A DNA stretch of 64,000 bases from Pseudeuparius sepicola (Eukaryota; Arthropoda; Insecta; Coleoptera; Anthribidae): positions 28,474,901 through 28,538,900 of the forward strand of contig OY987299.1 of the NCBI GenBank assembly GCA_963920635.1, read 5' to 3'. The first letter of the stretch is position 1. Each line of letters begins with the position of its first letter. The position numbers were made by a program, and so were the translations under genes. Below, in pieces: positions 7,348-56,869 of this stretch. Below the pieces are notes generated by a model. It had not been told where the DNA came from and made no database searches. It was given only the letters and a program-made list of their open reading frames with translations.

Positions 7348-9301
7348 CATTGACGTAGCTAAGGGGGGGCTGGGGGGGGGGGGCTAAGCCCCCTTTGGTA
7401 TAAAAATAGCCCCCCCTGACAAATTTTAGCGTTTATTTTTATAATTTTTTTGACATTATAGGTTTACATTAAAAACCTTACTAAGCTGATTTAATCTTGT
7501 TGCGTGTTCGTGTTATTGCGTATAGTAATAGACACTGACTAAAACACTAATAATGACAAAATAAAACAAACTAAACAGCGGCAACAGGGAACACTGGCAA
7601 CACTGCCGTCACGCACTCACCCCGCACCCGACCCCGTCAGTCCGCCACACGCCACACTCACAGAATTAGCATCACTCAGACACTCCTTAAAATAAGGGGA
7701 CCCAGCACATAGGAAAAGTGAAGCATTGAGGGGAAGTTTGTTTTCTGTAGACTCCAAGGAGACCACATAAGTGGGCTGGTACAAGGTTATGTTATATCTA
7801 TGTCAGTGTGTCCAACTGCCATCGGGTTTTATGGGATAAGATAGTGCCATAGATTCTAAAGGAGGCAAAAAATTTCCCATCATAATTCACAATTTCTAAG
7901 TTTTCTAACTTCCAGATACTCAGATGTGACAATTAAAGAATTTCAACTATACAACACTTTAAAGAGTCCCTGGCATCACTGCGAACCTGGACGGCTGGAC
8001 GTGACTGCTTACTGTGATTGATATGTAATACTGCGAAGACGCCAATGTACATCTATATTTTTACTTATGCGGTATCAGTATACAGGGTGAATTTTTTCGA
8101 TGCCCACTATGGGGATCTCGGAAACTAGCAGAGCTAGAACAAAGGTTAAATGGCGAAAGAATTGCAGTTTTGAATGCTCAATCTAATACCCCTTTTGGAT
8201 TTTTAAAAAAGTTCATCGCTCACTAGATATTTTGAAAAGAGTGATTTTTTGCTATTTCATCAGATCTCTGTAGCTCCGTTATTTCTGATTATACAAAAAA
8301 AACTGTAGAGACAAAAATTGTAGATAATTTTGGGCTTAATAAGATAATCTGATCCAATTTTTTATGATTTTTGTGATTTTTTAGATATGACATAAACTTG
8401 TGTTTTTTTAAATGTAAATCATAGTTGGCTGTGGCCTTATAAAATCGACCATTTTTGAGCTTGCCAAAGATATAATACTCGGCATAGTTATTATAAAAAA
8501 TAAAAGAGCTATGGCTAATTTTCTGATTTTTTTAAATTTTCACATAGTCAGCCATGGAACAGCTGCTCTTAATTCAACAATTGTCTCGTACTTTATTTTG
8601 TACTGTTCCCCACAAAAAAAAATCCAAAACAGACAATCGGGGGATCGGAGCTGCCAGGAAATAGGTTCTTACGGGCAAATAATTATTTGGTGGAGCTCCA
8701 TCATGACAATTTTTGTTTTATTTTGTTACATTTTGTTACCAGCTAAAAATAAAATATTTGAAAGTTTGAAGTATGTCTTATTATACGATAGAACGTAATT
8801 ATGAAAATATTCCATGGCTGACTTTGGAAAGCTCAAAAAATGGCCGATTTGATAAGGCCACAGCCAACTATGATTTACATTTAAAAAAAACACAAATTTA
8901 TGTCATATCTCAAAAATTACAAACAACAAAAAATTGGATTAGATTATCTTATTAAGCCCAAAATTATCTGCAATTTGCACTACAATCACTCTTTTCAAAG
9001 TATCTAGTGAGCCATGAACTTTTTTAAAAATCCAAAAGGTGCATTAGATTTAGCATTCAAATCTGCAATTCTTTCCTCATTTAACCTTTGTTCTAGCTCT
9101 GCTGGTTTCCGAGATCCCCATAGTGGGCATCGAGAAAAACTCACCCTGTATGTAGTAAAGTTGTGTGTATTTAAATTAATAACGTTGTGCCGATTAATAA
9201 GTAAATAAGCTATAGTTTGCGTAAGTACTTTAATTTTCTTCATTCTCATCTCCTTCAGGGGCTTAAGCCCCCCCGGAGAAAAAAAGCTAGCTACGCCTAT
9301 G
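7348..9301. mobile_element. hAT-type element with 8-bp TSD inside the recombinase gene
   Basis: The ends CATTGACGTAGCTA and TAGCTACGCCTATG are imperfect inverted repeats (12 of 14). They are flanked by a perfect direct repeat TTTTGCAC (7340-7347 and 9302-9309). Eight-bp duplications are typical of hAT elements. Subterminal G/C runs (AAGGGGGGG, GCTTAAGCCCC) also mirror each other. No hAT transposase is recognised. The right half is filled by a mariner-derived element (8083-9148). The element splits the recombinase exon exactly, since removing it with one TSD restores the frame. Confidence 0.8.
8083..9148 (-). mobile_element. Mariner-derived element with ~390-bp TIRs and transposase remnant
   Basis: Starts CAGGGTGAATTTTTTCG and ends CGAGAAAAACTCACCCTG, with TA on both sides. 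The arms pair inward to about 8475 and 8820. Between them, on the minus strand (about 8702-8590), are HDGAPPNNYLPVR and LSVLDFFFVGN. These correspond to the second-Asp motif (HDGAPPH) and the third-Asp region (PLDFFLWG) of mariner transposases, with the intervening codons lost and the SPD aspartate gone. It is therefore an internal-deletion derivative and cannot encode an enzyme. A second copy is at 12096-13160. A third, with more transposase sequence, is at 45633-50124. Confidence 0.8.
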
Positions 9302-9670
9302 TTTTGCACCAGCCTTTAAAGATTGTATAAGTTTTTAAGTAAACACTTTTCGACTTCTGTGGAAGCAACTGATCATTAATCTTTTGTGCCTCTTCTCTAA
9401 TTTCCGGAGGAGTGCAGAATATGTTTGGCGAGGATGAGCCATCATGATAATTATTATCACACATTTTTCACAAAAATAATATAAACTCACAGTTGATTTA
9501 GTCAAGAATAAATAATAATAATAATTAATGGCTAAATTTGACAGAAAACAGTAAAGAAACTTCATTTGATGAAACTAAAATCAAGGCTAACTTGATTTGT
9601 GATTAAATAATATGAAGGAAAAAACAAAGGTAAGTTTACTATTAAAAATGCTTTACAATTTTTTACAATA

Positions 9671-9730
9671 ATATTTTTATGGAGTGTTAGTAGTGGAAAA
9701 ATATTTTTATGGAGTGTTAGTAGTGTAAAA
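9671..9730. repeat. Two copies of a 30-bp direct repeat
   Basis: ATATTTTTATGGAGTGTTAG plus AGTGGAAAA / AGTGTAAAA, repeated head to tail. Its GTTAGTAGTGGAAAA matches 6064-6078 in reverse, so these may be the outer repeats of the recombinase unit. Copied at about 13683-13742. Confidence 0.7.
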
Positions 9731-9735
9731 AATTG

Positions 9736-9853
9736 TATATTAACCACGGTTTAGACAGCTATTATTGCCCTCACATCTTAAATCCCTCGGCGTTGCCTCG
9801 GGATTTAATATTGACCTACGGGTCAATAATAGCCTCTGTCTAAACCTTGGTTA
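9736..9853. repeat. Palindrome with CCTCGGCGTTGCCTCGG core (P2)
   Basis: Arms TTAACCACGGTTTAGACAG / CTGTCTAAACCTTGGTTAA enclose CTATTATTG / CAATAATAG and a centre CCCTCGGCGTTGCCTCGGG between TTAAAT and ATTTAA. It lies just upstream of the recombinase start (9464). Confidence 0.8.
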
Positions 9854-10624: not shown

Positions 10625-10757
10625 AGTTATTTATGTACCAAGGCACTGAAGTTCGACTTTTTATGACTCATGTGGTATTTAGTTGCCGAGGCCTCTGGCC
10701 GAGGCAAATAAACCACATTAGTCATAAAAAGAACTTCAGTGCCGAGGTACATAACTA
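10625..10757. repeat. Palindrome with GCCGAGGC core (P3)
   Basis: Arms AGTTATTTATGTACC..CTTTTTATGACTCATGTGG pair with CCACATTAGTCATAAAAAG..GTACATAACT. The centre TTAGTTGCCGAGGCC/TCTGGCCGAGGCAAATAA is itself a hairpin. A closely related palindrome is at 61474-61605, and half copies are at about 11028-11105 and 14165-14242. Confidence 0.8.
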
Positions 10758-11480
10758 TTATATTTTTTTTAAATCGGAAAAAATGTTTTATTAGGCAAGA
10801 AAATATTCATAGGGGATCGATCACCCATCGAGGAGCCAACTGCGCGCGGCGTTGCTTGACTTTGACGATCGCTCTACCTAGGTCAAGTATGATAAGACAC
10901 GGCGCCTTCGAACAGAAAAACCAAACTGCTCCTTGTTGTGCAGCCTCGATAACCAATCTATTGATATTCTAAAATATTTATCTTTAAAGATTGCGCTGCT
11001 ATAGGTAACAATTTCGCAATGTGGAGTTTAGTTGCTGAGGCCTCTGGCCGAGGCAAATAAACCACATGAGTCATAAAAAGAACTTCAGTGCCGAGGTACA
11101 TATTATATTTTTCTTGAAATCGGAAAAAAAAAGTTTTATTAGGCAAGAAAATAATAATAAGGGATCACCCGTCCACGAACCGACTACGCGCGGCGTTGCT
11201 TGACTTTACCGATCGCTCTACCTAGGACAAGTATAATGATGTACGGCACCTTCTGACAGAAAAACCAAACTGCTGCTTCTTGTGCAGCCTACAGCCGGGT
11301 TTTGAATATTTGGTCACTTTTGACGGGCGATTTCTCCGCGTCTGACGTTTGATGTTTACATCTCGCCAAGGCCTACTTATTGAAAAAATCGTACAATAAT
11401 GGGCTACATTATTGTACGATTTCTGTGCTTTTAATGACGAATTTGGGACATTTTAATGCCGATTTCAAGAAAAATATTTT
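10705..11480. repeat. Dispersed repeat family C with two ~349-bp tandem units
   Basis: CCACATTAGTCATAAAAAG at 10713 recurs as CCACATGAGTCATAAAAAG at about 11062. The following GGGATC..CACCC..GCGGCGTTGCTTGAC blocks also repeat. The same family, in one unit, is at 61555-62080, and both continue into a segment with GACGGGCGATTTCTCCGCG. No protein is recognised. Confidence 0.75.
11386..11422. repeat. Perfect 15-bp hairpin with invertible-looking loop
   Basis: AAATCGTACAATAAT pairs with ATTATTGTACGATTT around GGGCTAC. In the related copy at 61996-62032 the stems are the same but the loop reads GTAGCCC, its reverse complement. Confidence 0.85.
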
Positions 11481-12052
11481 TTTTGTCATTTCTGTAAAAG
11501 TACTTGAGTACTTCATAAGGGAAAATTATAACCAGTTTAATGCCTTACAACTAAAATATTTACTATAAAGTAACTAAAATATTTGCATAAAAAATTTAAG
11601 GGAGAAGAACTTGCCAGACCATTTACGAACGTTAAATATTTGGCGGAAATGCTAAAAATGCATGGCGAAAGAAATATGAGTTACTGCATAATGGAAAACC
11701 GCGGCTAAACCAATATTTTCCGTGTACGCCCTGGGATAATTATTATTTGTGGAGCCGCCCGTCTTGAAAAATTCAGCGGAAACAAAATGGATGGTGCCGA
11801 GCGGTCGTTAGACCCATCTTTTTTGGACTAACACCAGACAGACATTGTCTCGGTAATTTAGCAGGTTTTTGTTTAGCACGAACACCACATCTATGGAAAA
11901 GTCGTGTATAACAAATGACAATGTGGGAATTATGTAGGGAACTCATTATCCCATAACCGTTAATTATTTGGTACAATAGCGTTTCTCATATTTTTGTTGG
12001 GGTGCCAATTTTAAAGCACCATTGATAAAAAGAAGCATTAGTGTATGATTGA
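11481..12052. other. AT-rich remainder of unit 1
   Basis: No gene or repeat beyond the duplication itself. Short frames here lack known motifs. Confidence 0.5.
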
Positions 12053-12095
12053 CGCCAATGTACATCTATATTTTTACTTATGCGGTATCAGTATA

Positions 12096-13160
12096 CAGGG
12101 TGAATTTTTTCGATGCCCACTATGGGGATCTCGGAAACTAGCAGAGCTAGAACAAAGGTTAAATGGCGAAAGAATTGCAGTTTTGAATGCTCAATCTAAT
12201 ACCCCTTTTGGATTTTTAAAAAAGTTCATGGCTCACTAGATATTTTGAAAAGAGTGATTTTTTGCTATTTCATCAGATCTCTGTAGCTCCGTTATTTCTG
12301 ATTATACAAAAAAACCGTAGAGACAAAAATTGTAGATAATTTTGGGCTTAATAAGATAATCTGATCCAATTTTTTATGATTTTTGTTATTTTTTAGATAT
12401 GACATAAACTTGTGTTTTTTTAAATGTAAATCATAGTTGGCTGTGGCCTTATAAAATCGGCCATTTTTGAGCTTGCCAAAGATATAATACTCGGCATAGT
12501 TATTATAAAAAATAAAAGAGCTATGGCTAATTTTCTGATTTTTTTAAATTTTCACATAGTCAGCCATGGAACAGCTGCTCTTAATTCAACAATTGTCTCG
12601 TACTTTATTTTGTACTGTTCCCCACAAAAAAAAATCCAAAACAGACAATCGGGGGATCGGAGCTGCCAGGAAATAGGTTCTTACGGGCAAATAATTATTT
12701 GGTGGAGCTCCATCATGACAATTTTTGTTTTATTTTGTTACATTTTGTTACCAGCTAAAAATAAAATATTTGAAAGTTTGAAGTATGTCTTATTATACGA
12801 TAGAACGTAATTATGAAAATATTCCATGGCTGACTTTGGAAAGCTCAAAAAATGGCCGATTTGATAAGGCCACAGCCAACTATGATTTACATTTAAAAAA
12901 AACACAAGTTTATGTCATATCTCAAAAATTACAAACAACAAAAAATTGGATTAGATTATCTTATTAAGCCCAAAATTATCTGCAATTTGCACTACAATCA
13001 CTCTTTTCAAAGTATCTAGTGAGCCATGAACTTTTTTAAAAATCCAAAAGGTGCATTAGATTTAGCATTCAAATCTGCAATTCTTTCCTCATTTAACCTT
13101 TGTTCTAGCTCTGCTGGTTTCCGAGATCCCCATAGTGGGCATCGAGAAAAACTCACCCTG
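12096..13160 (-). mobile_element. Mariner-derived element, duplicated copy
   Basis: Nearly identical to 8083-9148, offset by 4012-4013 bp. Same TIRs, same HDGAPP and LDFFF transposase remnant on the minus strand. One A is missing from a run near 12310 and a few bases differ. Confidence 0.85.
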
Positions 13161-13313
13161 TATGTAGTAAAGTTGTGTGTATTTAAATTAATAACGTTGT
13201 GCCGATTAATAAGTAAATAAGCTATAGTTTGCGTAAGTACTTTAATTTTCTTCATTCTCATCTCCTTCAGGGGCTTAAGCCCCCCCGGAGAAAAAAAGCT
13301 AGCTACGCCTATG

Positions 13314-13476
13314 TTTTGCACCAGCCTTTAAAGATTGTATAAGTTTTTAAGTAAACACTTTTCGACTTCTGTGGAAGCAACTGATCATTAATCTTTTGTG
13401 CCTCTTCTCTAATTTCCGGAGGAGTGCAGAATATGTTTGGCGAGGATGAGCCATCATGATAATTATTATCACACAT
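13314..13476 (-). pseudogene. Duplicated N-terminal fragment of the tyrosine recombinase
   Basis: Copy of 9302-9464: starts MCDNN at 13476, carries PPEIREEAQKIND and ends at the hAT junction. The rest of the gene was outside the duplicated segment, so this fragment has no catalytic region. The right part of the hAT element (ending at 13313) adjoins it. Confidence 0.75.
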
Positions 13477-13875
13477 TTTTCACAAAAATAATATAAACTC
13501 ACAGTTGATTTAGTCAAGAATAAATAATAATAATAATTAATGGCTAAATTTGACAGAAAACAGTAAAGAAACTTCATTTGATGAAACTAAAATCAAGGCT
13601 AACTTGATTTGTGATTAAATAATATGAAGGAAAAAACAAAGGTAAGTTTACTATTAAAAATGCTTTACAATTTTTTACAATAATATTTTTATGGAGTGTT
13701 AGTAGTGGAAAAATATTTTTATGGAGTGTTAGTAGTGTAAAAAATTGTATATTAACCACGGTTTAGACAGCTATTATTGCCCTCACATCTTAAATCCCTC
13801 GGCGTTGCCTCGGGATTTAATATTTAATTTAATATTGACCTACATTGAACCACATTAGTCATAAAAAGAACTTCA

Positions 13876-14590
13876 GTGCCGAGGTACATAACTATTATAT
13901 TTTTTTTAAATCGGAAAAAATGTTTTATTAGGCAAGAAAATATTCATAGGGGATCGATCACCCATCGAGGAGCCAACTGCGCGCGGCGTTGCTTGACTTT
14001 GACGATCGCTCTACCTAGGTCAAGTATGATAAGACACGGCGCCTTCGAACAGAAAAACCAAACTGCTCCTTGTTGTGCAGCCTCGATAACCAATCTATTG
14101 ATATTCTAAAATATTTATCTTTAAAGATTGCGCTGCTATAGGTAACAATTTCGCAATGTGGAGTTTAGTTGCTGAGGCCTCTGGCCGAGGCAAATAAACC
14201 ACATGAGTCATAAAAAGAACTTCAGTGCCGAGGTACATATTATATTTTTCTTGAAATCGGAAAAAAAAAGTTTTATTAGGCAAGAAAATAATAATAAGGG
14301 ATCACCCGTCCACGAACCGACTACGCGCGGCGTTGCTTGACTTTACCGATCGCTCTACCTAGGACAAGTATAATGATGTACGGCACCTTCTGACAGAAAA
14401 ACCAAACTGCTGCTTCTTGTGCAGCCTACAGCCGGGTTTTGAATATTTGGTCACTTTTGACGGGCGATTTCTCCGCGTCTGACGTTTGATGTTTACATCT
14501 CGCCAAGGCCTACTTATTGAAAAAATCGTACAATAATGGGCTACATTATTGTACGATTTCTGTGCTTTTAATGACGAATTTGGGACATTT
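13876..14590. repeat. Dispersed repeat family C, duplicated copy
   Basis: Same as 10739-11480 in unit 1, offset 3137 bp, including the two tandem units and the 15-bp hairpin with loop GGGCTAC at about 14523-14559. Confidence 0.8.
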
Positions 14591-15302
14591 TAATGCCGAT
14601 TTCAAGAAAAATATTTTTTTTGTCATTTCTGTAAAAGTACTTGAGTACTTCATAAGGGAAAATTATAACCAGTTTAATGCCTTACAACTAAAATATTTAC
14701 TATAAAGTAACTAAAATATTTGCATAAAAAATTTAAGGGAGAAGAACTTGCCAGACCATTTACGAACGTTAAATATTTGGCGGAAATGCTAAAAATGCAT
14801 GGCGAAAGAAATATGAGTTACTGCATAATGGAAAACCGCGGCTAAACCAATATTTTCCGTGTACGCCCTGGGATAATTATTATTTGTGGAGCCGCCCGTC
14901 TTGAAAAATTCAGCGGAAACAAAATGGATGGTGCCGAGCGGTCGTTAGACCCATCTTTTTTGGACTAACACCAGACAGACATTGTCTCGGTAATTTAGCA
15001 GGTTTTTGTTTAGCACGAACACCACATCTATGGAAAAGTCGTGTATAACAAATGACAATGTGGGAATTATGTAGGGAACTCATTATCCCATAACCGTTAA
15101 TTATTTGGTACAATAGCGTTTCTCATATTTTTGTTGGGGTGCCAATTTTAAAGCACCATTGATAAAAAGAAGCATTAGTGTATGATTGATATTAAAAGCC
15201 GCACGGAAAACGAAAAAGTTGCAGGTTACTAAAAAGATTATCTCAAAATTGAAGCCCATTATTCAACGAAGAAAATTTATTACAACACATAATGTTTCAT
15301 AG

Positions 15303-18083: not shown

Positions 18084-18410
18084 ATAATAAATTAATGAGA
18101 AAAATCTGGCAATGACGCGTATACAGCTTCAGTATATAGTTTACAGGGTGATTCAGCCATAATGTAAAAAAATTTAACCACAGGTAGAAAAAAATAGCTT
18201 AATATGAATCCGAAATTAATAAAAGTCAACGAAAAAAAATAAAAAATATTTTCCGAATTGAATTAAAACCCCTTCTTAACGGCGCTTTCCTAGTCAGCTG
18301 GTAAGCTCGCGCGTCAAGACTTGTGCACAGTTGCCAATTGCATAACACAGAAATTATTTCAAAAATGTAGAAATTCTGAGAAAACACTAGAAGGTCGATA
18401 TTTGTCCTGG

Positions 18411-18842
18411 CACTGCTGCCCGGAACTCACTTCTGCCTTTTTGCGGCAGTGGAATACTTCCAACTCTTCTGCGTTCTCTCAGATTAGGAATGGCTGAGAG
18501 GTTTAATCTGCCACCAGACGAGGCAGTTGTGGCAGACAGAAGGTTGAAAGGTATTTAGTTGCTACCAGACGAGGCACTTGTAACAACAGAAGGACGGTAT
18601 TTATTTGCTACCAGACGAGGCACTTGTAGCAAATATGATGAAGGTATTTACTACCAGACGAGGCACTTGTAGTAAAGGATGTTTGGTTCGGACACCACTG
18701 TCAGAGAGCAGCCTCACTCCCTGCGACGGTATTGTGGCTTGGTCACAGTGGTGGTGGAAAGGTTTTTGTGAAGGGATATATATCGCTACCAGAGAGCAGC
18801 CTCACTCTCTTCTAGGGCTAAGGTGGCTTGGGCATAGCGATA
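18411..18842. repeat. Array of about eight hairpins with shared loops and differing stems
   Basis: In order: CACTGCTGC/GCGGCAGTG (18411, 18443); CTCTCAG/CTGAGAG (18476, 18494). Four units then share the 14-nt loop CAGACGAGGCACTT (or ..CAGTT), with stems TCTGCCAC/GTGGCAGA (18507, 18529), GTTGCTAC/GTAACAAC (18558, 18580; one mismatch), TATTTGCTAC/GTAGCAAATA (18602, 18626) and TTTACTAC/GTAGTAAA (18647, 18669). Two more share a ~45-nt loop with AGAGAGCAGCCTCACTC and GTGGCTTGG, with stems CACCACTG/CAGTGGTG (18693, 18746) and TATCGCTA/TAGCGATA (18781, 18835). The stems keep pairing while their sequence changes. Function unknown. Confidence 0.8.
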
Positions 18843-19289
18843 AGTATGAGAAACAACACAAACGAGTTGGATCTGATTTATTTCATTTTGTGGAGCTGTA
18901 TTTATACAAAATATTTGTTTATATTTTATGTGTATTGACGCACATACTACGTGCGTCACGCGTGCTGTTCTGCAACGTCAGTACGTTGCGTTTCTATGTG
19001 ACCTGAATTATAATTAAATGATTTAATTAAGATTAAACAATATTTTTTTGTGGTTTTTAAAAAATATCATTATAATGTCCAAAAATGTATTGAGAATTAA
19101 CACTGTTCACAAAATGCCACCAGTAACTTGACCACACAGATTAAAGGCACACGTTTATTCTGTTCGTGAGCGTCAGATCTTAGCATCTCCTAGCCTATAA
19201 TAGGTAGGAGAAATCTGTTGTGATACAGTAATAAGCCCATTAGCGTATAATAAAACTGCCAATTTATGATGGGATACATACTTCCGTAA

Positions 19290-19660
19290 GATTGTAGCAA
19301 TTTTCTCGTGCAGCAGGCCGGTTTACCTGCGCTGCCGCCTGTCGTACACAGAATGTGGGAGCACGAGCATGGTGAGGATGGTATCCAAGAATTTGGCGGT
19401 AGCAGCGGTTCACAGCATCGATCCACGGGAAGAGTACAGATGCACGTGCACTTCCCTCTGCCTTCCACTAGACACTGGCGAGTGGCCGGGTGGCGGACGG
19501 CGGTACTTGGTACTGAGACACTGGCGGCGGCGGCCCGGCGGAGGGGATGTTCACCCGATCAGAATCAGCCGTCTACGCAGCTAGTGGGCGGTTGGAACGG
19601 GCGGCGCAGTGGCAACGCAGCGCGTCGCAGCCTACGGAACGCTGAGTTACTAGGGACTAG
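19290..19660. other. GC-rich patch within the TIR element
   Basis: Open on both strands. On the minus strand CGGCAGCGCAG|GTAAAC at about 19330 looks like a 5' splice site preceded by an ATG (MLVLPHSVYDRR). It could be a captured 5' exon and promoter, but no protein family is recognised. Confidence 0.25.
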
Positions 19661-19829
19661 GGTTGATTTGCCCCAAGTTTTAGACTTCTTCGAAAAGTTT
19701 TTCTTGCATTTTCCTTTTTAGTAGGCGTCCCCTATTGTGTGGCTAAAATTTTTTACCTCATGACTGAATCACCCTGTATAATCGTAGCACGACAAAGGAG
19801 ACAAAACAATCACAACGAAAACTTAAATT

Positions 19830-22833: not shown

Positions 22834-24727
22834 TATATTAGAATACAACAATTGTCAATATATTAGAATACAACGATTTAATGTAAACTGTCAAATCTCC
22901 ATTTGTAATATTCTCGCAATAACTGTTTTGAATTTTCCATGGCAATTTTGATTTTATATATATGTATATACATTGGTCTATATCTGCAAAACGCGACATT
23001 CATTTGTTTTTCTGTTTATTGACATTAAAAACACCAACTAATCTAGAAATATATCCAAAATTAAAACCCAGAAATATTTTTAGTTGTTAACACTTTATTT
23101 TTAACTCGATCATTGGCAACAACATATTAAACATGGAACCCAAAGTAGGTACGTAAATATAATGTAAGTACATATCCGGTGCCCTTTAACTATTTTTAAT
23201 GTAAATAAATATTCATATATGTAGAAAAAAGTATCTAAATATCGCTGGACATCGATTTGCATTTGATCGAACAAACTCTTGACAATCTGGCGTTCACAAA
23301 CTGTACGGTACTATGCTGCCTATAGGTGTTACCTGGTACAATGTCGACTATAGAACGCGATCAGTGGATTTAAAGACGGGCCCATTCACGCCGAGCCGGG
23401 CTTCCTGTTATAGCTGCCGCAGTAGTTGGCTTAGCCCGCTGCGATTTTTAGAGGCCGACTTCGCTTTTATTGAATACGATTAGGTTAAGGAAAATTTAGG
23501 GCCGGCACTGCCGCGCTGGCCGGGGATAAAATTTTTATGGCGCCCCGGACTATGTTCGGGCCGTTATACCTGGATGAGGGTCTGCGGTCCTCGAACCGAT
23601 GAGGGTGAACGAGCGGGTGGCGAAATCGGCCTATCGGAAATAGCGGTGAAAGGGTATACGTATATAAATAAGAATAGAAAATAGTTAGAAATAACCTGGA
23701 TGACAAAAAACGTAAATCGTTTTTCAAAGGATATTTTTGTTAATTTCTATTGGTTCTAATTATTGGTAAGCGATTTGTGGTGTGTGAGCTTATTCCATAC
23801 AACTTAACCTGTACACTTTCTGGTGCGAGACAACCTTAATTATTCGCGATATATTATTTGAATCATGTTAATAATTATCCCTGTAGCTCATACAGTTTAT
23901 TAATAGCACTGCCTGTAAGACATAAACATCCCTATAAAATAGATAATTTGAAGGTAAAACTGTCGCCACCAAAGTAATATCTTATAATAGTGTCGAGTAG
24001 CGAACATTTTTTCTTCATGACTTTAATTAAAATCGAATTTTAGGTATATTCTTTACTCGTGTGTGTAAGTTTTACGCAATATGTTTTTCCTCTAATCCGA
24101 TTAATTATGCAAGCACATTTTTTATCGAAATAACTTTTTGGAATTGCGGGCCACACTGTACATATATGACTATCTGTTTTTAATTTCCTGAAACTTGCAG
24201 CGGAATTTATGCAAACATCCGCTACAACGGTAATAACCTTTCGGCTCTCCCGATATACCGCATATTTTTAACTACCGACAAACTGCCATCACCATTATGC
24301 AACCAGTTATACACACGGGGAGTGAATTATGTGCTACTTGGAATTTACGAATTTTGCAATAGTTTATTCATATACAGGTACGTTGTTTCTTTGCCTTTCC
24401 AATTTATCTTTAAACAAATTCATATAACTAACAATTTAGATCAAATGAGGTATGTATCTGAACAAAAGCCTAAAACTATATGTTGATTGCGCTTGAAGAA
24501 GAAGAAGCCTAACTTTTATATTTCATGGTTTTGACAGACCGAAGTTGTAAATAGGACCGACAGGCAATTTTCGCCCTGCTTTTTTCTCTGCTCGTCGACA
24601 CAACAGGTGCGGTACTTTGGGTTTATGCACGTTTGATATTCCTTGCGAATTTTTCAATCTTTGTTCATTATGCATAATATTCCTCTTTTCATAGCTTGAT
24701 CTTGATTTGGTGTAAAAAGACTATATA
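22834..24727. other. No recognised gene; one GC-rich patch
   Basis: AT-rich except 23350-23640, a GC-rich patch like that at 5236. No domain is seen in any frame. Confidence 0.4.
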
Positions 24728-25928
24728 CAGGGTTATTCAAAAACAAATGCCACCCGTAGCACAGCGGTATTCTACTCCAAAAATAAAGTGACCCGTGTTT
24801 TTTCTTTTTGTTCAAAGCTCTATATTAAGGGCCCCACGGGCCCTTAAAAGGGGTCCTAAAATTTCGTTTTTTCGCTATATCTTTTAAACGGCTTGATCGA
24901 TTTTAATGATCTTTTGCACACGTTCATAGATAATTATGTCACATAATTATGTTATAGTGCAGTATCCGCAACCGCCAGAGGGCGCTACTTGTGCCAACCA
25001 GTTTCAATTATTATGCTCAGAACTTTTTAGCCCACAGTTAACTTGTAAATTAATTCGAACCACTTTGTAAAAAATTCCATTCTCCACAAAAAATATTCTA
25101 GTATTTTTTCCATAAATTATGCCATTTCGGAGATAATGCCCAAAATTCAGCCATCATGCACGTACCTTGTACCCACGCATATTAAACATTAGTGGCATAA
25201 TGATCTAGTTACCTTTGGAAACAATCACACTTAAGAGGACTTATTAAGTATTTGACATTTACTTTTAAGCAAATGCTAAAAAATTGGAAGTTTTTGAGCA
25301 TTTGCTGTAGTTATTTCAATATTAGGTATTTGTATCATTATTTTATTAGGGAAACTTAACTAAATGTATTAAATTACAACATTTGAATTTTAGAAAACAT
25401 GGTCAAAAGGTAAATGTGATTGTTTCATTGTTTGTTTCCAAAAATAACTAGATCATAATGCCACTAATGTTTAATATGAGTGGGTTCGTGGTACGTGCCT
25501 GATGGCTGAATTTTGGGCGTTATCTCCGAAACGGTAAAATTTATGAAAAAACCAGTAGAATCGTTTTTTGTAGAGAATGGAATTTTTTACAAAGTGGTTC
25601 AAATTAATTTACAAGTTAACTGTGGGCAAAAAAGTTCTGAGCATAATAAATGAAACTGGTTGGCACAAGTGGCGCCCTCTGGCGGTTGCGGATACTGCAC
25701 TATAACATAATTATGTGACATAATTATCTATGAACGTGTGCAAAAGATCATTAAAATCGATCAAGCCGTTTAAAAGATATAGCGAAAAAACGAAATTTTA
25801 GGGTCCCTTTTAAGGGCCCGTGGGCCCTTAATATAGAGCTTTGAACAAAAAGAAAAAACACGGGTCACTTTATTTTTGGAGTAGAATACCGCTGTGCTGC
25901 GGGTGGCATTTGTTTTTGAATAACCCTG
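24728..25928. mobile_element. 1.2-kb near-complete palindrome with CAGGGTTATTC ends
   Basis: Flanked by TA. Left arm 24728-25235 and right arm 25417-25928 are inverted copies about 510 bp long with some divergence, starting CAGGGTTATTCAAAAACAAA and ending TTTGTTTTTGAATAACCCTG. The ~180-bp centre is unique. Non-coding. Related to the mariner-like elements with CAGGG ends. Confidence 0.9.
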
Positions 25929-25958
25929 TATAATTGAGTATATTTAATTTTTCATATA

Positions 25959-26899
25959 GGGTAAGTCCGGGAGAGATGGCCCACCGGGTGAGACGGCGCA
26001 TTCAAATATTTTCGCCAGCATTACATTTGCACACACGCTCAATTAGTCACGGCGAGTCTAATGTGCAGCTGACAACCTATTTCGTGTTTAGTGATGTTAA
26101 AGCAAAATACTGGTAAGTTATGTTCAATAATATTATTTGGATGGCTTGAAATTATTTTACGCTTATGGAAATGCGTTGTTTTTTATCGATAGGTACTTTA
26201 TTTTTAATAAAAATACCAGTGTCGAAATAGCTTCATAGGTTACTGAGATTATGTGGATGGGCCGTTATTGAAATGATTATGACGGGTAAACTGACCAACG
26301 GGTGGACCATCTCTCCCGCATTGTTGGGATAGATGGCCCACTGACGTCATGGGATAGATGGCCATCTCTCCCTCATGGAGAAAATAGGTAAATTATTTAT
26401 TTGTTTTTTCAACTGATTACAAATGAAAAGCAACAGTAAGAGAGCAATTATTGTGCGTCGAATATATTGAAATGGCTGCACAAGCAGTTAGAAATGGTAT
26501 ACAATAGGAGTCAGAGAAGCCTGTCGCACATTCAATAACATTCCTCCCTCATCATTTAGAAATGGTTCTATGAGAGTTTTTCAAAATACCTGAATTTATG
26601 AGATCTCTGTGGCAAAGTTTTATGCAAAAAGAGACAATAAATAAAAATACTTTTGTCGAACCATCTCACCCGCCTAGCTGGGCCAACTCACCCATATACT
26701 ACGGGTGAGATGGCTCACTGTGCCTAAAGTTATTTTATTTTTTATCGAGAAATAATATTTTGTTTTTGTCAAAATCGTACCGCTGCTATGACACTGTTTG
26801 TATTTACTTTTTAAATAAATTTTCTTACTCAACTATCTGAATGCATTTCACTGTTACAATAATTTTAGAAAAAGTGGGCCAACTCTCCTGGTCTTACCC
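25959..26899 (+). mobile_element. pogo/Tigger-like element with decayed transposase
   Basis: Ends GGGTAAGTCCGGGAGAGATGG and CCAACTCTCCTGGTCTTACCC, flanked by TA. Inside, the terminal motif (gggAgAgATGGCCCAC and variants) recurs at about 26290-26375 and 26660-26720 in both orientations, as subterminal repeats. At 26471-26580 reading frames give AAQAVRNG and, after a shift, GVREACRTFNNIP, which resembles the N-terminal psq/CENP-B-type helix-turn-helix of pogo-like transposases. No DDE domain is left. Confidence 0.65.
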
Positions 26900-41165: not shown

Positions 41166-41185
41166 TTAAATATATATATATATAT

Positions 41186-41231
<46 letters not shown>

Positions 41232-41243
41232 TACATCCTTATA

Positions 41244-41324
<81 letters not shown>

Positions 41325-41359
41325 CATCCTTATATATATATATATATACATATATATAC

Positions 41360-41411
<52 letters not shown>
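41166..41411. repeat. (TA)n microsatellite with embedded satellite fragments
   Basis: About 245 bp of TA repeats with occasional CA/GA. Twice it contains TTACATCCTTATA, which is the end of the adjoining 326-bp satellite unit. Confidence 0.95.
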
Positions 41412-41414
<3 letters not shown>

Positions 41415-42859
41415 AAAAGGTGATAATGGGCAAACACTCAAAGTTAACAAAAAGAAAAAACTAGTAACCGCATACACGTGTTTCATGCTATTTGGCAATC
41501 ATCAGTACGGTGTAACATTAACCAAATCAAAAGATAGGCATGATTTGGGAAGCAACAAATGAAGTCCAGGCAGGAGCCAACAGCACATTTGCAGCTTCAG
41601 TCAGCACATCCCCTATTTTGGGGCTTGTACTAACATCGCCACGGAGGCTGCTAAAGCGACCTGCGTGGAAATCTTCATAACCCAAGATACAATGACAATA
41701 AGGATGTAAGATTAGCGAGTGTAAATGTAACAATTACAAGAAAAGGTGATAATGGGCAAACACTCAAAGTTAACAAAAAGAAAAAACTAGTAACCGCATA
41801 CACGTGTTTCATGCTATTTGGCAATCATCAGTACGGTGTAACATTAACCAAATCAAAAGATAGGCATGATTTGGGAAGCAACAAATGAAGTCCAGGCAGG
41901 AGCCAACAGCACATTTGCAGCTTCAGTCAGCACATCCCCTATTTTGGGGCTTGTACTAACATCGCCACGGAGGCTGCTAAAGCGACCTGCGTGGAAATCT
42001 TCATAACCCAAGATACAATGACAATAAGGATGTAAGATTAGCGAGTGTAAATGTAACAATTACAAGAAAAGGTGATAATGGGCAAACACTCAAAGTTAAC
42101 AAAAAGAAAAAACTAGTAACCGCATACACGTGTTTCATGCTATTTATTTATACTATTTATTATTATTTATTATGTAATTGTTACATTTACACTCGCTAAT
42201 CTTACATCCTTATTGTCATTGTATCTTGGGTTATGAAGATTTCCACGCAGGTCGCTTTAGCAGCCTCCGTGGCGATGTTAGTACAAGCCCCAAAATAGGG
42301 GATGTGCTGACTGAAGCTGCAAATGTGCTGTTGGCTCCTGCCTGGACTTCATTTGTTGCTTCCCAAATCATGCCTATCTTTTGATTTGGTTAATGTTACA
42401 CCGTACTGATGATTGCCAAATAGCATGAAACACGTGTATGCGGTTACTAGTTTTTTCTTTTTGTTAACTTTGAGTGTTTGCCCATTATCACCTTTTCTTG
42501 TAATTGTTACATTTACACTCGCTAATCTTACATCCTTATTGTCATTGTATCTTGGGTTATGAAGATTTCCACGCAGGTCGCTTTAGCAGCCTCCGTGGCG
42601 ATGTTAGTACAAGCCCCAAAATAGGGGATGTGCTGACTGAAGCTGCAAATGTGCTGTTGGCTCCTGCCTGGACTTCATTTGTTGCTTCCCAAATCATGCC
42701 TATCTTTTGATTTGGTTAATGTTACACCGTACTGATGATTGCCAAATAGCATGAAACACGTGTATGCGGTTACTAGTTTTTTCTTTTTGTTAACTTTGAG
42801 TGTTTGCCCATTATCACCTTTTCTTGTAATTGTTACATTTACACTCGCTAATCTTACAT

Positions 42860-42865
<6 letters not shown>
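41412..42865. repeat. 326-bp satellite arranged as a head-to-head palindrome
   Basis: Units start at 41412, 41738 and 42064 (the last partial, to 42145). After a 28-bp AT spacer, inverted units start at 42174, 42500 and 42826 (partial). The units are essentially identical. Each contains a 68-codon frame (MLHLHSLILHPYC..) seen four times, but no codon-specific conservation can be judged because the units are identical. I recognise no protein. Confidence 0.95.

Positions 42866-42915
<50 letters not shown>
42866..42915. repeat. (TA)n microsatellite, right flank of the satellite
   Basis: About 50 bp of TA follow TTACATCCT, mirroring the left flank. Confidence 0.95.
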
Positions 42916-45365: not shown

Positions 45366-46132
45366 AGATAGTGGAATACCAAAGACGGAGAAACTCGTCC
45401 GGCAATGATAGTTTCTAGGACTGAGAGTTCGTCAGACTCTTTGGAACCGTACTGACATCGATACAGGATGATTTCTTAGGTCTACCATCGCGATTTTCTC
45501 GCTTATTTTGAGCTCCACAAAAAAAAAAAGTAAGAAACAAAAACGAGACAATTTTGAATAGCTTGGGAAATTGGGCAAAATTATTAGTAGCGTAGCATGT
45601 TTCTTGTAAGAGATAAAAGAAAACTTTTTATACAGGGTGAGTTTTTTCGATGCCCATTATGGGGATCTCGGAAACTGGCAGAGCTAGAACATAGGTTAAA
45701 TGGGGAAAGAATTGCAGTTTTGAATGCTCAATCTAATGCCCCTTTTGGATTTTAAAAAAGTTCATGGCTCACTAGATATTCTGAAAAGAGTGATTTTTTT
45801 GCTATTTCATCAGGTCTTTGTAGCTCCGTTATTTCTGATTATACAGAAAAACTGTAGAGACAAAAATTGTAGATAATTTTGGACTTAATAAGATAATCTT
45901 ATCCAATTTTTTTTGTTGTTTGTGACTTTTGAGATATGACATAAACTTGTGTTTTTTTATGTAAATCATAGTTGGCTGTGGCCTTATTAAATCGGACATT
46001 TTTTGAGCTTTCCAAAGATATAATATTCGGCATAGTTATTATAAAAAATAAAAGAGCTATGGCTAATTTTCTGTTTTTTTTTTAATTTTCACATAGTCAG
46101 CTATGGAATATTTTCATAATTATGTTCTATTT

Positions 46133-46133
<1 letters not shown>

Positions 46134-46167
<34 letters not shown>
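46134..46167. repeat. (TAA)n target of the Dong-type LINE, left side
   Basis: About eleven TAA units directly before the LINE sequence. Matching (TAA)n resumes at 48709-48725 after its 3' end. Confidence 0.9.
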
Positions 46168-46169
<2 letters not shown>

Positions 46170-48589
46170 CCCCCCCTAGCAGAGAACAGGTCGACGGTTT
46201 CTGGAGAAATCAACTTGCCACACCAGGTCCATACAATGTCAGTGCAAGCTGGATCAGCGAAGAACGCGAGATGGGCCGGAACTATAGCCAGATGCAACAC
46301 GAGCAATTCACAACCGCTGAGGTCTCCGATGTCATCAAGAATTCCCACAACTGGAAGGCACCAGGTCCAGATCATCTCCAAAATTATTGGATTAAGAAGT
46401 TGTGGTGCACGCATGAACAAATAACTACCTTAATTAATGAAGTCTTGCTCGATCCTCTGAAAATGCCATTGTTTCTTACACAGGGTGCAACTTACCTGTT
46501 ACCAAAAGACCAGCGGAATACGGATAACCCTGCCAAGTACCGCCCAATAACCTGCTTGCCTACGCTTTACAAGATAATCACATCTTGCCTTACGCAGCGA
46601 ATATATGCTCACTGCGAGCGGAACAACATCATTGCAATGCAGCAGAAGGGCTGCTCGAAGGGCGCAATGGGATGCAAAGAGCAACTCATCATAGACTCTG
46701 TCATCTGCAACCAGGCTCATTCCAAGCAACGAAACCTCCACATGGCTTATGTGGACTACAAAAAAGCATTTGATTCCGTACCCCACGACTGGCTCACAGG
46801 TATCTTAAAGCTGTATAAAATAGATCATCATACAGTTTCCTTTTTAGAACACGTTATGACAACCTGGCGCACTAAGATACAACTCAGAACCGCAGACAGT
46901 AACATCGAGACCGACACAATCAACATCCGAAGAGGGATTTTCCAAGGAGATTCACTCAGTCCACTGTGGTTCTGCATGGCGATGAACCCTCTATCACATC
47001 GGTTGAACTCTACAAAATATGGCTTCGCTATCAAAAGCAACAACGCAGAAGCGATCAAGTTGAATCACCTATTATATATGGATGATTTAAAACTGATCGC
47101 CGCAACCAAAAACCAACTAACGCAAATGCTTAAAATTGTAGAGGAGTTCTCCAGGGACATCGGAATGCTGTTTGGACTGGACAAGTGCCGCACCCTTAAT
47201 ATCATCCGGGGAAAGCTCGAACAAAGCGCACACGAGATGCAGGACGGCCAGGAGATCGAAGCAATGAGCAAGGGAGATACATACAAGTATCTCGGGATGA
47301 AACAAGCTCAAAGGATAGACCATCGAACAATGAAGACTGATTTAACGAATGAATTCATCAAGAGAGTAAGACAAGTAGTGCGAACTGATCTTAACAGCAG
47401 GAATTTGTTTAAGGCCCTGAACACGTATGCGTGCTCTGTACTCAGCTATTCGTTCGGAATAGTGAATTGGACCAACACGGACATCAACAACCTGCAACGA
47501 AAAGTTAGGACACTACTGACAAAAGCTCATAAACATCATCCCCGTAGCGCCGTAGAAAGAACAACTCTGCCACGTCAACTAGGAGGAAGAGGATTGGCAG
47601 ATCTCAGCAAGCAATTGCACCAACAAATATTAAATCTGCGTAATTATTTCTACAGGCAGGCCAACAGCTCCACACTACATAGGGCTATATGCGGAGCAGA
47701 CGTCTCAACACCGCTACGTCTGACGGAACACGAGCGTCAAAATCACCACCGAACCGACAACGATAAACTACAGAGGTGGTTGGGGAAGCCGCTGCACGGG
47801 AGACATCCTAATGAGGTTAACCAGGAACATGTCGACAAGTTAGCGTCGAACTATTGGCTGACCTCGGGACGAATGTTCCCCGAGACGGAAGGCTTCCTAC
47901 TGGCCATACAAGATCAGGTTATACCAACTCGCAACTACCTAAAATTCATTGTAGGAGATGCATCGGTAGTGGATGACAGATGCAGATACGGGTGCCCAAC
48001 TTCAGAAACAATCCAGCACATAACAGGAGGATGTCAGATGTTCGCATCAACGGAATATAAGGAACGACACGATTCGGTTGCCAAGATCTTGCACCGGGAA
48101 CTGGCGGAAAAGCTGCTGCTTGTGCAGACAGAAAGGGTCCCATATTACAACTACACACCTGAGCCTGTTCTTGAGAACAGCAACTACAAGATGTACTGGG
48201 ATCGTACAGTTCTGACTGATCAACGAGTTGCCCATAACAGACCGGACCTTATAATAGTTGATAAAATTTCTAGGAAGACAACTCTGATTGATGTGGCCAT
48301 CCCGAACAACAACAACCTGCGTGTGAAGCAAGTCGAGAAGATCGCGAAGTACAGAGACTTAGAAGAACGAATTAGAAGGCAATGGGAAATGGAGAACGTC
48401 CAGACGATTCCAATCATCATGTCAACAACTGGTGTTATACCAAAAAGTTTGCTGAGAAACATCAAGGAGCTGAATCTAACTGATAGTCTTTACAGGTCCA
48501 TGCAGAAAGCGGTACTACTTGCGACAGCCCGAACCGTCAGGAAATTCATGGGGAATGCAGGATCGTCCAAGAACATCAATGTCACCTAG
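46168..48589 (+). CDS. R4/Dong-type LINE polyprotein: reverse transcriptase and REL endonuclease
   Basis: Intact to the stop at 48589; the frame is open from ATG 46103, but the first ~22 codons come from host element and TAA sequence. Numbering from 46103: RT motifs AYVDYKKAFDSVPH (catalytic D218), GIFQGDSLSPL (Q281-D283) and YMDD (325-328). Zinc knuckle CRYGCPTSETIQHITGGC (C627, C631, H639, C644). Then the restriction-like endonuclease RPDLIIVDK..IDVAIP with P714, D715 and D730. RT upstream of CCHC and PD..D places it in the R2/R4/NeSL group. The polymerase and nuclease would act together in target-primed reverse transcription. Dong of Bombyx is known to insert into TAA repeats, which fits the (TAA)n on both sides. 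The 5' end is truncated: the N-terminal DNA-binding region is missing. All catalytic residues and an undamaged frame suggest a recent insertion. The 3' UTR is about 120 bp. Confidence 0.9.
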
Positions 48590-54989: not shown

Positions 54990-56855
54990 CCATAGAAAAA
55001 AGTACATTACATAGTGCCACACCATAGAGGACACTAAAATAAGAAAAAAAGTTCCTATGAACATGGGTCCGCAAGGCCTTCGATTATGTTGAATTGTAAT
55101 TTTTTTTGTTTTGTTTTTTACGAATATCTTTAGCCAGAGACGCAAGAAATGGATAAAATGTAGTATACAGTTTTTTTTATCATGCTAAATTCAAATACGC
55201 TCTACATTACAGGGTTGCATCTCTATTGAATCGGTCCTAACTTTTTTGCTATACAGTTTATGTTATTTTCGACTGAAAAAATGTTATCCCATCTTTTATA
55301 CTTACGAAAGGTATACCTTGTCCAAGTCGCTAGAAGCAATGGTTCCAGTACAAATGCATCTAAAGCCGACAATGCATGCAAATTATTTATTCAAAAAGCA
55401 TCAAAGTAACCTTTGCAAAAACAATGATAAGTAACAATGAAATAATGTGTCATAATGACACTTGTCAAACTAATTTAATAATTGTTATTAGGTAGTAGGT
55501 ATTTTGTGCTCTTGTTTAAGTTTTTATTGGTTTTCTCGTTGATGATTCAAAATTGATTTCAAAAATGGTTCACTATACTTTTGAAGAATACAGGGACATG
55601 ATTATGTGTTACGGCGAAGCTAGATCAAATTCTTACGAAGCTCAACGTATCTATCGAGAAAGATATCCTTTAAAACAAGTTCCTAATGTTCGAACATTTA
55701 TTGATGTGCATAGGCGTTTGGGAGAAGATGGATGTTTTAGAAAACCAAAAGTGAATAGTGGGGTTTCCAGAACTTGTCGCACTGTGCAAAACGAAGAAAC
55801 TGTTTTACGAATGTTAGAAAATAATCCGAGAACAAGCACCAGGAAAATAAGTTCAGCGGTGCGAAACGTTAACAGTGAATCAGTTAGACAAATTTTGAAA
55901 GAACAACTTCTTCGCCCATACCATTTCCAAAAAATTAATTCACTATTGCAACATGACTTTTTTCCTCGTGTACAATTTTGCGAATGGTTGCAAAACCAAA
56001 GACAAAACATTATTTCATCAATTTTGTTTACTGACTAAGCTGGTTTTAGTCGTGATGGTATTTTGAACCTACATAACATGCACTATTGGAGTGATGAAAA
56101 TGCTCATCAAACTGTAATTCGAAGTCACCAATATGGGTTTTCTATTAATGTGTGGGCAGGTATAATCGACAATTACTTAATTGGCCCATTTCGATTGCCC
56201 GATCGATTGACAGGTGCGCTGTATCGAAATTTCTTGGAGAATGATTTAAACACATTATTAGAGGATGTCCCATTGGCCATTACTGGAAGAATGTATTACA
56301 TGCATGACGGGGCGCCAGCTCACTTTTCTCGAGTGGTAAAGGAATATTTGGACAGGAGATTTGCAAATACGTGGATTGGTCGAGGAGGGCCTGTACCCTG
56401 GCCAGCTCGTAGTCCCGACCTTAATCCCCTCGATTTTTCATTTTGGGGATTTATGAAAAATGAAGTTTATGCTGTAGAAATACATAATGAAGCACAGTTA
56501 TGGATAAGAATTATGGAATCGGCAGATAGATTTCGTAATGACCCAGGAATATTTCAAAGATGCCGTCAATCATTAAGAAGAAGAATGGAAAAATGTATTG
56601 AAGTACAAGGGCAACAATTTGAACATCTTCTAAAACCTTAATGTTTTGTTTTAACTAATCATATTTTTCATCATACCATTACAATTTAATTGTAAGTATT
56701 TATCATTGTTTTTGCAAATAAATAAAAAAAATTACAATTCAACACCCCGTATCTTTTAACCGAAGGCCTTGCGGACCCATGTTCATAGGAACTTTTTTTC
56801 TTATTTTAGTGTCCTCTATGGTGTGGCACTATGTAATGTACTTTTTTCTATGTCA
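54990..56855 (+). mobile_element. Mariner-like transposon, nearly complete
   Basis: The ends are inverted repeats of about 110 bp: ATAGAAAAAAGTACATTACA..CTAAAATAAG..TTCCTATGAACATGGG at the left and its complement at 56755-56852, with an ~11-bp deletion in the left arm. The right end runs on to CACCCTGTATA, the signature of the other elements; the left tip is decayed. It contains one transposase gene (55553-56641). Confidence 0.85.
55553..56641 (+). pseudogene. Mariner-like transposase, one in-frame stop
   Basis: 362 codons from MISKMVHYTFEEYRDMI. The N-terminal ~120 residues fit a helix-turn-helix DNA-binding region (RTSTRKISSAV..VRQILKE). The catalytic domain has D161 in LFTD, D252 in YMHDGAPAHFSR and D289 in WPARSPDLNPLDFSFWG, with 36 residues between the last two. 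So all three metal-binding Asp are present. A single TAA at 56036-56038 follows D161 directly, where related enzymes have Glu (FTDEA). The rest stays in frame to EGQQFEHLLK-like C-terminus (VQGQQFEHLLKP). ATG 55553 or 55565 could start it. It would cut and paste its own element at TA. One point mutation inactivates it here, so the insertion is young. Confidence 0.9.
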
Positions 56856-56869
56856 CCCTGTATAGTAGG

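What the first reader, a model, noticed from the sequence alone, without database searches (positions are those of the whole stretch)
18411..18842. Hairpin array with conserved loops and covarying stems
About eight hairpins in 430 bp. Four share the loop CAGACGAGGCACTT while their stems read TCTGCCAC/GTGGCAGA, GTTGCTAC/GTAACAAC, TATTTGCTAC/GTAGCAAATA and TTTACTAC/GTAGTAAA. Two more share a ~45-nt loop but have wholly different stems, CACCACTG/CAGTGGTG and TATCGCTA/TAGCGATA. Loops kept and stems changed in both arms together is the reverse of ordinary repeat decay. It suggests selection on structure (RNA, or folded single-stranded DNA as in integron attC sites), or a mechanism that copies the flank into an inverted arm when a loop unit inserts. 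I know of no described insect element of this kind.
Basis: partly seen in the sequence, partly recalled or inferred. Interest (0 to 1): 0.82.

Follow-up and report, generated by a model that had tools for sequence, protein, structure and literature searches.

The report
Transposon-borne array of six RNA-like hairpins
Inside a small DNA transposon in what looks like an insect genome lies a row of six related hairpins whose paired stems have changed in step while their loops stayed nearly the same, which suggests an undescribed folded RNA; no second copy could be examined, so it remains a candidate.

Summary
Six related hairpins lie at 18507-18842: four short (14-nt loop) and two long (45 and 46 nt between arms). 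Eight stem pairs differ on both sides between copies; 2 of 500 shuffles match the short set, 39 of 500 the long pair. The long stems are not "wholly different": 4 of 8 pairs are the same. New here: (1) the minus strand is the likelier RNA: folding z -4.6 against -1.8 on the same 481 nt; of four one-sided stem changes, three leave G-U there and one breaks an inner pair. (2) Stem double changes are 7 of 8 transitions, unpaired changes 0 of 6, window baseline 49%; this fits RNA covariation better than template switching. (3) Loop UGCCUCGU of the short hairpins is complementary to UGAGGCUG of the long ones, a possible kissing interaction. (4) The array sits in a 1.64-kb element with 40-bp inverted repeats of TA-CAGGGTG (Tc1/mariner) type. 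No Rfam family and no relative in the collections searched; the host genome search did not complete. Best reading: a transposon-carried structured RNA, function unproven.

The parts
18142..19778 (.). Non-autonomous Tc1/mariner-type element (about 1.64 kb) that encloses the array; TACAGGGTGATTCA at both ends
   Evidence: tblastn of the window's own transposase pieces finds no convincing remnant inside (best E 0.076)
18143..18182 (+). Left terminal inverted repeat, 40 nt, 87.5% to the right one
19738..19777 (-). Right terminal inverted repeat
18507..18536 (-). Short hairpin u1, 8 bp (a ninth G-U possible outside), loop AACTGCCTCGTCTG on the - strand
18558..18587 (-). Short hairpin u2, 8 bp with one U-G pair on the - strand
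18602..18635 (-). Short hairpin u3, 10 bp
18647..18676 (-). Short hairpin u4, 8 bp
18693..18753 (-). Long hairpin u5, 8 bp outer stem (9 with an inner U-A), holds UGAGGCUG
18781..18842 (-). Long hairpin u6, 8 bp outer stem (9 with an inner U-G), holds UGAGGCUG
18476..18500 (-). Further hairpin CTCTCAG/CTGAGAG with an unrelated loop
18433..18449 (-). Small hairpin CTGCC/GGCAG
18459..18871 (-). Possible closing stem TCCAACTC (18459-18466) / GAGTTGGA (18864-18871) around the array; unproven
   Evidence: 0 of its 8 pairs form in the predicted folds of either strand
18899..18906 (-). TATAAATA, 32 nt upstream of an initiator-like TCAGATC (A at 18874); predicted - strand promoter, weak evidence
   Evidence: 21 such octamers, either strand, in the window

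Best explanation
The array is most likely a structured noncoding RNA read from the minus strand (roughly 18874 down to the 18385 region), carried inside a non-autonomous Tc1/mariner-type transposon. Shown: six related hairpins, loops nearly unchanged within each kind, stems covarying, terminal inverted repeats around them. Inferred: the hairpins arose by duplication and have been held to paired stems of about 8 bp by selection on the RNA, with compensation through G-U intermediates. Inferred: the loops are frozen because they contact a partner, either a protein bound many times along the RNA, or each other: the loop UGCCUCGU of the four short hairpins can form a 5-bp core (plus a possible G-U) with UGAGGCUG of the two long ones, giving a multivalent kissing network within or between RNAs. 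What the RNA does for the transposon or host is not shown.
For: Eight stem pairs with changes on both sides: 4 in the short set (2 of 500 shuffles), 4 in the long pair (39 of 500). Stem double changes 7 transitions: 1 transversion; unpaired substitutions 0: 6; Fisher p 0.0047, or 0.0015 with the four one-sided changes at paired columns included (10:2 against 0:6); window baseline 49% transitions. Three of four one-sided changes leave G-U on the - strand. Folding z -4.58 on - against -1.81 on + for the same 481 nt. On -, all six stems form in both minimum-energy and centroid folds (u1 by 7 of 8 pairs); on +, four or five of six. Pairing outward from the loop runs 8 in five units and 10 in u3, apart from one extra G-U in u1. 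Loop complementarity -9.8 kcal/mol, reached by 0.085%, 0.27% and 0.14% of three kinds of random 8-mer pairs.
Against: One locus only; all copies are in one array, so there are few independent events. No transcription data. The strand call rests on three wobble pairs (two-sided p only 0.25) and on a z-score difference that partly depends on them; the raw energy is lower on + (-155.2 against -145.4). One short hairpin (u1) has a C-C mismatch in the inner 2-bp pair. Which loop columns count as unpaired depends on the structure chosen for the long hairpins. The inner hairpin that presents UGAGGCUG as a loop is not the lowest-energy fold of the long units (-14.7 against -23.7 and -13.3 against -19.6 kcal/mol), and the loop match was noticed by eye, so its p values are optimistic. 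The TATA octamer is common here (21 in the window). At least 20 of 318 tiled windows have a larger folding excess than the array.
Confidence: 0.55

Rival explanations
1. Template switching during DNA replication rewrote one arm of each hairpin as the complement of the other; no selection on RNA is needed. Tandem duplication made the copies, and repeated self-templated repair kept the stems paired while loops stayed.
For: The mechanism is published and can create perfect stems and multi-base compensatory changes in one event (PMC8794818: abstract, opening paragraphs and the section 'Footprints of CMs' read). It needs no function, and the array lies in a mobile element that may be free to drift.
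Against: It does not predict that stem changes are nearly all transitions while unpaired changes are all transversions, nor G-U pairs left on one strand, nor stems of nearly one length. It gives no reason for the loops to be conserved. All of this rests on few changes.
Confidence: 0.2
2. The array is a host RNA gene fragment that the transposon captured, or into which inverted-repeat elements inserted on both sides, and it is now decaying.
For: The element also holds a G+C-rich stretch (about 19443-19642, 66-69%), as captured DNA might; no copy of the array elsewhere in the window (outside the array the best scores are E 0.47 and 2).
Against: Outer stems still pair in all six copies, which argues against long decay; no Rfam family matches.
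Confidence: 0.14
3. The hairpins work as folded DNA (cruciforms or single strands) recognised by a recombinase or transposase, as attC sites or subterminal repeats do.
For: The array is inside an element with well-kept inverted repeats.
Against: Only one attC-type core site in the 511 bp examined, outside all six hairpins; the G-U pairs fit RNA; Tc1/mariner transposases bind terminal double-stranded DNA (recalled).
Confidence: 0.08
4. Chance: a tandem repeat whose unit happens to be palindromic.
For: The unit is tandemly repeated, so one palindrome would be copied with it.
Against: Copying alone does not change both arms together eight times; occurrences of the loop elsewhere have mostly unpaired flanks.
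Confidence: 0.03

Closest known systems
roX RNAs of Drosophila (tandem stem-loops, MSL complex)
   Same: Several stem-loops in tandem in one noncoding RNA, acting together (title of Ilik et al. 2013 seen in the reference list of PMC9506574, where I read three passages on stem-loops; the paper itself is not held)
   Different: No Rfam family of any kind matches here; the roX box was not searched for separately; here the units are direct repeats of one hairpin inside a transposon
RNAs that assemble through kissing loops or as oligomers (oskar mRNA in granules; GOLLD, ROOL and OLE RNAs)
   Same: Loop-loop contact or RNA-only assembly (starts of abstracts in the listing: PMC11567897, PMC12286853)
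   Different: Here the loop match is a prediction only, between two different loops (4 short against 2 long), and no homology is claimed
Tc1/mariner-type MITEs with TA-CAGGGTG ends
   Same: TA at both ends and CAGGGTG termini; the right end shares TACAGGGTGA and, by eye, a subterminal GCCACAC-ATAG-GGAC with the window's DUF4817/DDE_3 element at about 54990-56862
   Different: The terminal repeats differ in sequence after the first ten bases; I know of no MITE described with an array of covarying hairpins (recalled; the listings showed none)
Double-hairpin elements of fungal mitochondria; integron attC sites
   Same: Compact hairpin units repeated in DNA (recalled)
   Different: Different compartment or organism; no attC core pattern in the hairpins. 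Paper searches on double hairpins gave 0 papers and one yeast paper, listing only

Membership tests
Any Rfam 15 family | Score at or above the family's gathering cut-off | tested here: not met
   0 matches in the window; the four matches at E up to 10 over 18250-19000 are far below cut-off (best 17.8 bits against 46)
Tc1/mariner-type non-autonomous element | Terminal inverted repeats | tested here: met
   40 nt, 87.5%
Tc1/mariner-type non-autonomous element | TA target-site duplication | tested here: met
   TA directly outside CAGGGTG at both ends; only two bases, so weak, and no empty site was seen
Tc1/mariner-type non-autonomous element | Ends like those of an autonomous partner | tested here: inconclusive
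   Shares TACAGGGTGA and a subterminal stretch with the window's DUF4817/DDE_3 element, not the rest; compared by eye
Integron attC site | Paired RYYYAAC/GTTRRRY core sites in each unit | tested here: not met
   one site in 511 bp, outside the hairpins
roX RNA | roX box | not tested
   only the Rfam scan was run
roX RNA | Binding by the MSL complex | not testable with these tools
   needs an experiment
Structured noncoding RNA | Covariation beyond shuffled and slid controls | tested here: met
   short set 2 of 500 shuffles; long pair weaker, 39 of 500; only one locus
Structured noncoding RNA | Transcribed | not testable with these tools
   no RNA reads available

The most novel reading that the evidence does not exclude
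A transposon encodes a multivalent RNA: four hairpins bearing one loop and two bearing its complement, so that copies fold on and bind to one another through kissing loops. Loops are frozen because each must fit several partners, while each stem only has to fit itself and is free to covary. Such an RNA could gather transposon transcripts, or a protein, into assemblies.
Probability: 0.12. Interest if true: 0.85.

Novelty: new variant of a known kind. Interest (0 to 1): 0.52.

Why it matters
Transposons without proteins are usually seen as passive. A small DNA transposon that carries an RNA under selection for its fold would be unusual, and the tandem copies let stem covariation be read inside a single locus. 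If relatives exist, the locus also gives a test of template switching against G-U-mediated covariation, the question that PMC8794818 addresses (abstract and parts read).

Tried and rejected
Rfam at gathering level for the window and at E up to 10 for 18250-19000: nothing usable. tRNA scan: none. Covariance models of both hairpin kinds against the window with filters off: apart from the six copies and their + strand shadows, the best are E 0.47 (short model) and E 2 (long model). Tandem short-loop pattern and long-loop pattern in viral contigs: 0 and 0. Single short loop in viral contigs: 103 matches, judged chance from their number and mostly unpaired flanks. Tandem pattern in genome contigs: 2 bacterial loci, which by eye are arrays of a short GAAGAGGCAGTT-like repeat without the stems; not scored for stems. 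Plasmids and phages, blastn with words of 11: no match. Protein search with the 133-aa + strand frame across part of the array: none of 5 candidates scored, so coding is not supported. The exact loop in the paper library: one paper on a fungus of apple, listing only, judged unrelated. A first search on template switching with cruciforms gave six papers, none opened. Pol III reading (no TTTT on the - strand from 18911 to 18384): not used as evidence, since three longer TTTT-free gaps exist on that strand. Counts on A2 had misplaced brackets (both helices in 42, the inner helix in 46); one search is the correct one, so the alternative inner fold of the long hairpins was not validly counted. Sliding-window folding: the locus is not exceptional by energy.

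The first transition counts (stems 7:1 against loops 1:7; 10:1 against 0:7) were made by eye and placed columns 11 and 54 differently; one search recounted from the alignments and one search gives the figures used. The first + strand fold (461 nt, z -1.75) was on a shorter stretch than the - strand fold; one search repeats it on the same 481 nt (z -1.81).

Full report
Observation. The six hairpins are present at the places given. On the - strand the short ones read stem, then a 14-nt loop around UGCCUCGU, then stem; the long ones have 45 and 46 nt between arms, with the shared blocks CCAAGCCAC and GAGUGAGGCUGCUCUCUG. Continuing outward from the loop, unbroken pairing runs 8 positions in five units and 10 in u3; u1 can add one G-U on the - strand, and u5 and u6 can add one pair on the inner side. 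u2 is fully paired only if U-G counts, on the - strand.

Covariation. In the short set (4 sequences, 10 pairs, 40 cells) 97.5% of cells pair, 4 pairs change on both sides, and 2 of 500 shuffles do as well; slid controls show 0 or 1. In the long pair (2 sequences, 14 pairs) all cells pair, 4 pairs change on both sides, and 39 of 500 shuffles do as well; slid controls 0 or 1. The chance that 8 changed sites among 16 stem sites fall as 4 whole pairs is 0.005. Occurrences of the short loop in viral contigs serve as a control: all 103 have at most 5 of 7 outer positions paired, 95 of them 3 or fewer.

Which process. Counting from the stored alignments: double changes in stems are 7 transitions and 1 transversion; one-sided changes at paired columns are 3 transitions, all leaving G-U on the - strand, and 1 transversion that breaks an inner pair in u1; unpaired columns have 6 transversions, no transition, and one indel. 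Paired against unpaired gives Fisher p 0.0015, doubles alone 0.0047; against the window baseline the doubles give 0.032 and the unpaired changes 0.017. Repeat copies elsewhere in this window show 501 transitions to 516 transversions (the alignment pairs overlap, so these are not independent, and pairs over 98% alike and those in the low-complexity block at 41-43 kb were dropped). Two-step change through G-U predicts transitions in stems; rewriting an arm by template switching does not. The numbers are small, columns were classed after the structure was chosen, another inner fold of the long hairpins would class some loop columns otherwise, and the count by eye was revised once.

Strand. The 481-nt - strand folds at z -4.58 with 0 of 100 shuffles as good; the same 481 nt on the + strand give -1.81, 4 of 100. 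The raw energy is lower on + (-155.2 against -145.4 kcal/mol), so the point is the excess over shuffles. On - all six stems form in minimum-energy and centroid folds, u1 by 7 of 8 pairs inside a longer helix; on + u2 does not form, and u6 forms only in the shorter stretch. A TATAAATA lies 32 nt upstream of TCAGATC on the - strand, and three TGACG/CGTCA half-sites lie beyond it. The octamer occurs 21 times in the window and such a half-site cluster once more at 26280, so this is a hint only.

Loop partners. The apical loop of the short hairpins and UGAGGCUG in the long ones are complementary over GCCUC/GAGGC, with a further possible G-U. Duplex energy -9.8 kcal/mol; self-pairs -0.9 and -3.8. 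Random 8-mers reach it in 0.085% (composition), 0.27% (same loops shuffled) and 23 of 16767 sampled pairs from the same RNA. Against it: the inner hairpin that would present the loop is 6 to 9 kcal/mol above the minimum-energy fold of its unit. The complementarity never varies, so there is no covariation for or against it.

Setting. TACAGGGTGATTCA stands at 18142-18155 and, inverted, at 19765-19778 without mismatch, opening 40-bp inverted repeats at 87.5%. The window holds other elements with TA-CAGGGTG-like ends. The element's right end shares, by eye, a subterminal GCCACAC-ATAG-GGAC with an element around a DUF4817/DDE_3 transposase at 55553-56641. tblastn with that transposase's two pieces finds no convincing remnant in the array element; other transposases were not tried. 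So the array is most simply described as cargo or a resident part of a non-autonomous transposon.

Reach. Nothing like the array was found in Rfam, viral contigs, bacterial and archaeal genome contigs, plasmids, phages, or the protein set. These probably hold little or no insect DNA, so absence there says little. The host genome search did not complete (18 tries). Paper searches on insect non-autonomous elements with tandem hairpins, tandem stem-loop noncoding RNAs, double hairpins and kissing loops showed no such element among the 15, 15, 0, 1 and 8 papers listed, out of 421, 376, 0, 1 and 40 that held the terms; only listings were seen. Papers opened: PMC8794818 (abstract, opening paragraphs, one section) and PMC9506574 (three passages).

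Verdict. A real, non-random structural array with covarying stems, probably RNA, inside a transposon. Not categorically new: tandem hairpin RNAs are a known kind. The loop-to-loop complementarity is the boldest reading and is open to a simple test.

Noticed in passing
18936-18989: Two more short CpG-containing inverted repeats, TGACGCAC/GTGCGTCA and GCAACGT/ACGTTGC (by eye), upstream of the array on the - strand; they hold three CRE-like half-sites.
   Followed up: partly
54991-56862: A mariner-type element with a DUF4817/DDE_3 transposase in two pieces and terminal repeats that agree except for one 12-base gap and two mismatches; its right end has TACAGGGTGA, its left end seems to lack these first bases.
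   Followed up: partly
41170-42915: A 326-bp tandem repeat (100% matches) in two blocks inverted to each other and flanked by AT dinucleotide runs; 41332-42914 matches itself in reverse at 94%.
   Followed up: no
8038-9812 and 12051-13824: A 1.77-kb direct duplication at 99.7%, beside another at 10711-12052 / 13848-15189 (100%).
   Followed up: no
24724-25932: A 1.2-kb element that matches its own reverse complement at 87%, with TACAGGGTTATTCA ends.
   Followed up: no
46103-48589: An open 828-codon frame with a reverse transcriptase domain (RVT_1, E 3.6e-31), possibly an intact retroelement protein.
   Followed up: no
19443-19642: A G+C-rich stretch (66-69%) inside the same transposon, unlike its AT-rich surroundings; possibly captured DNA.
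   Followed up: no
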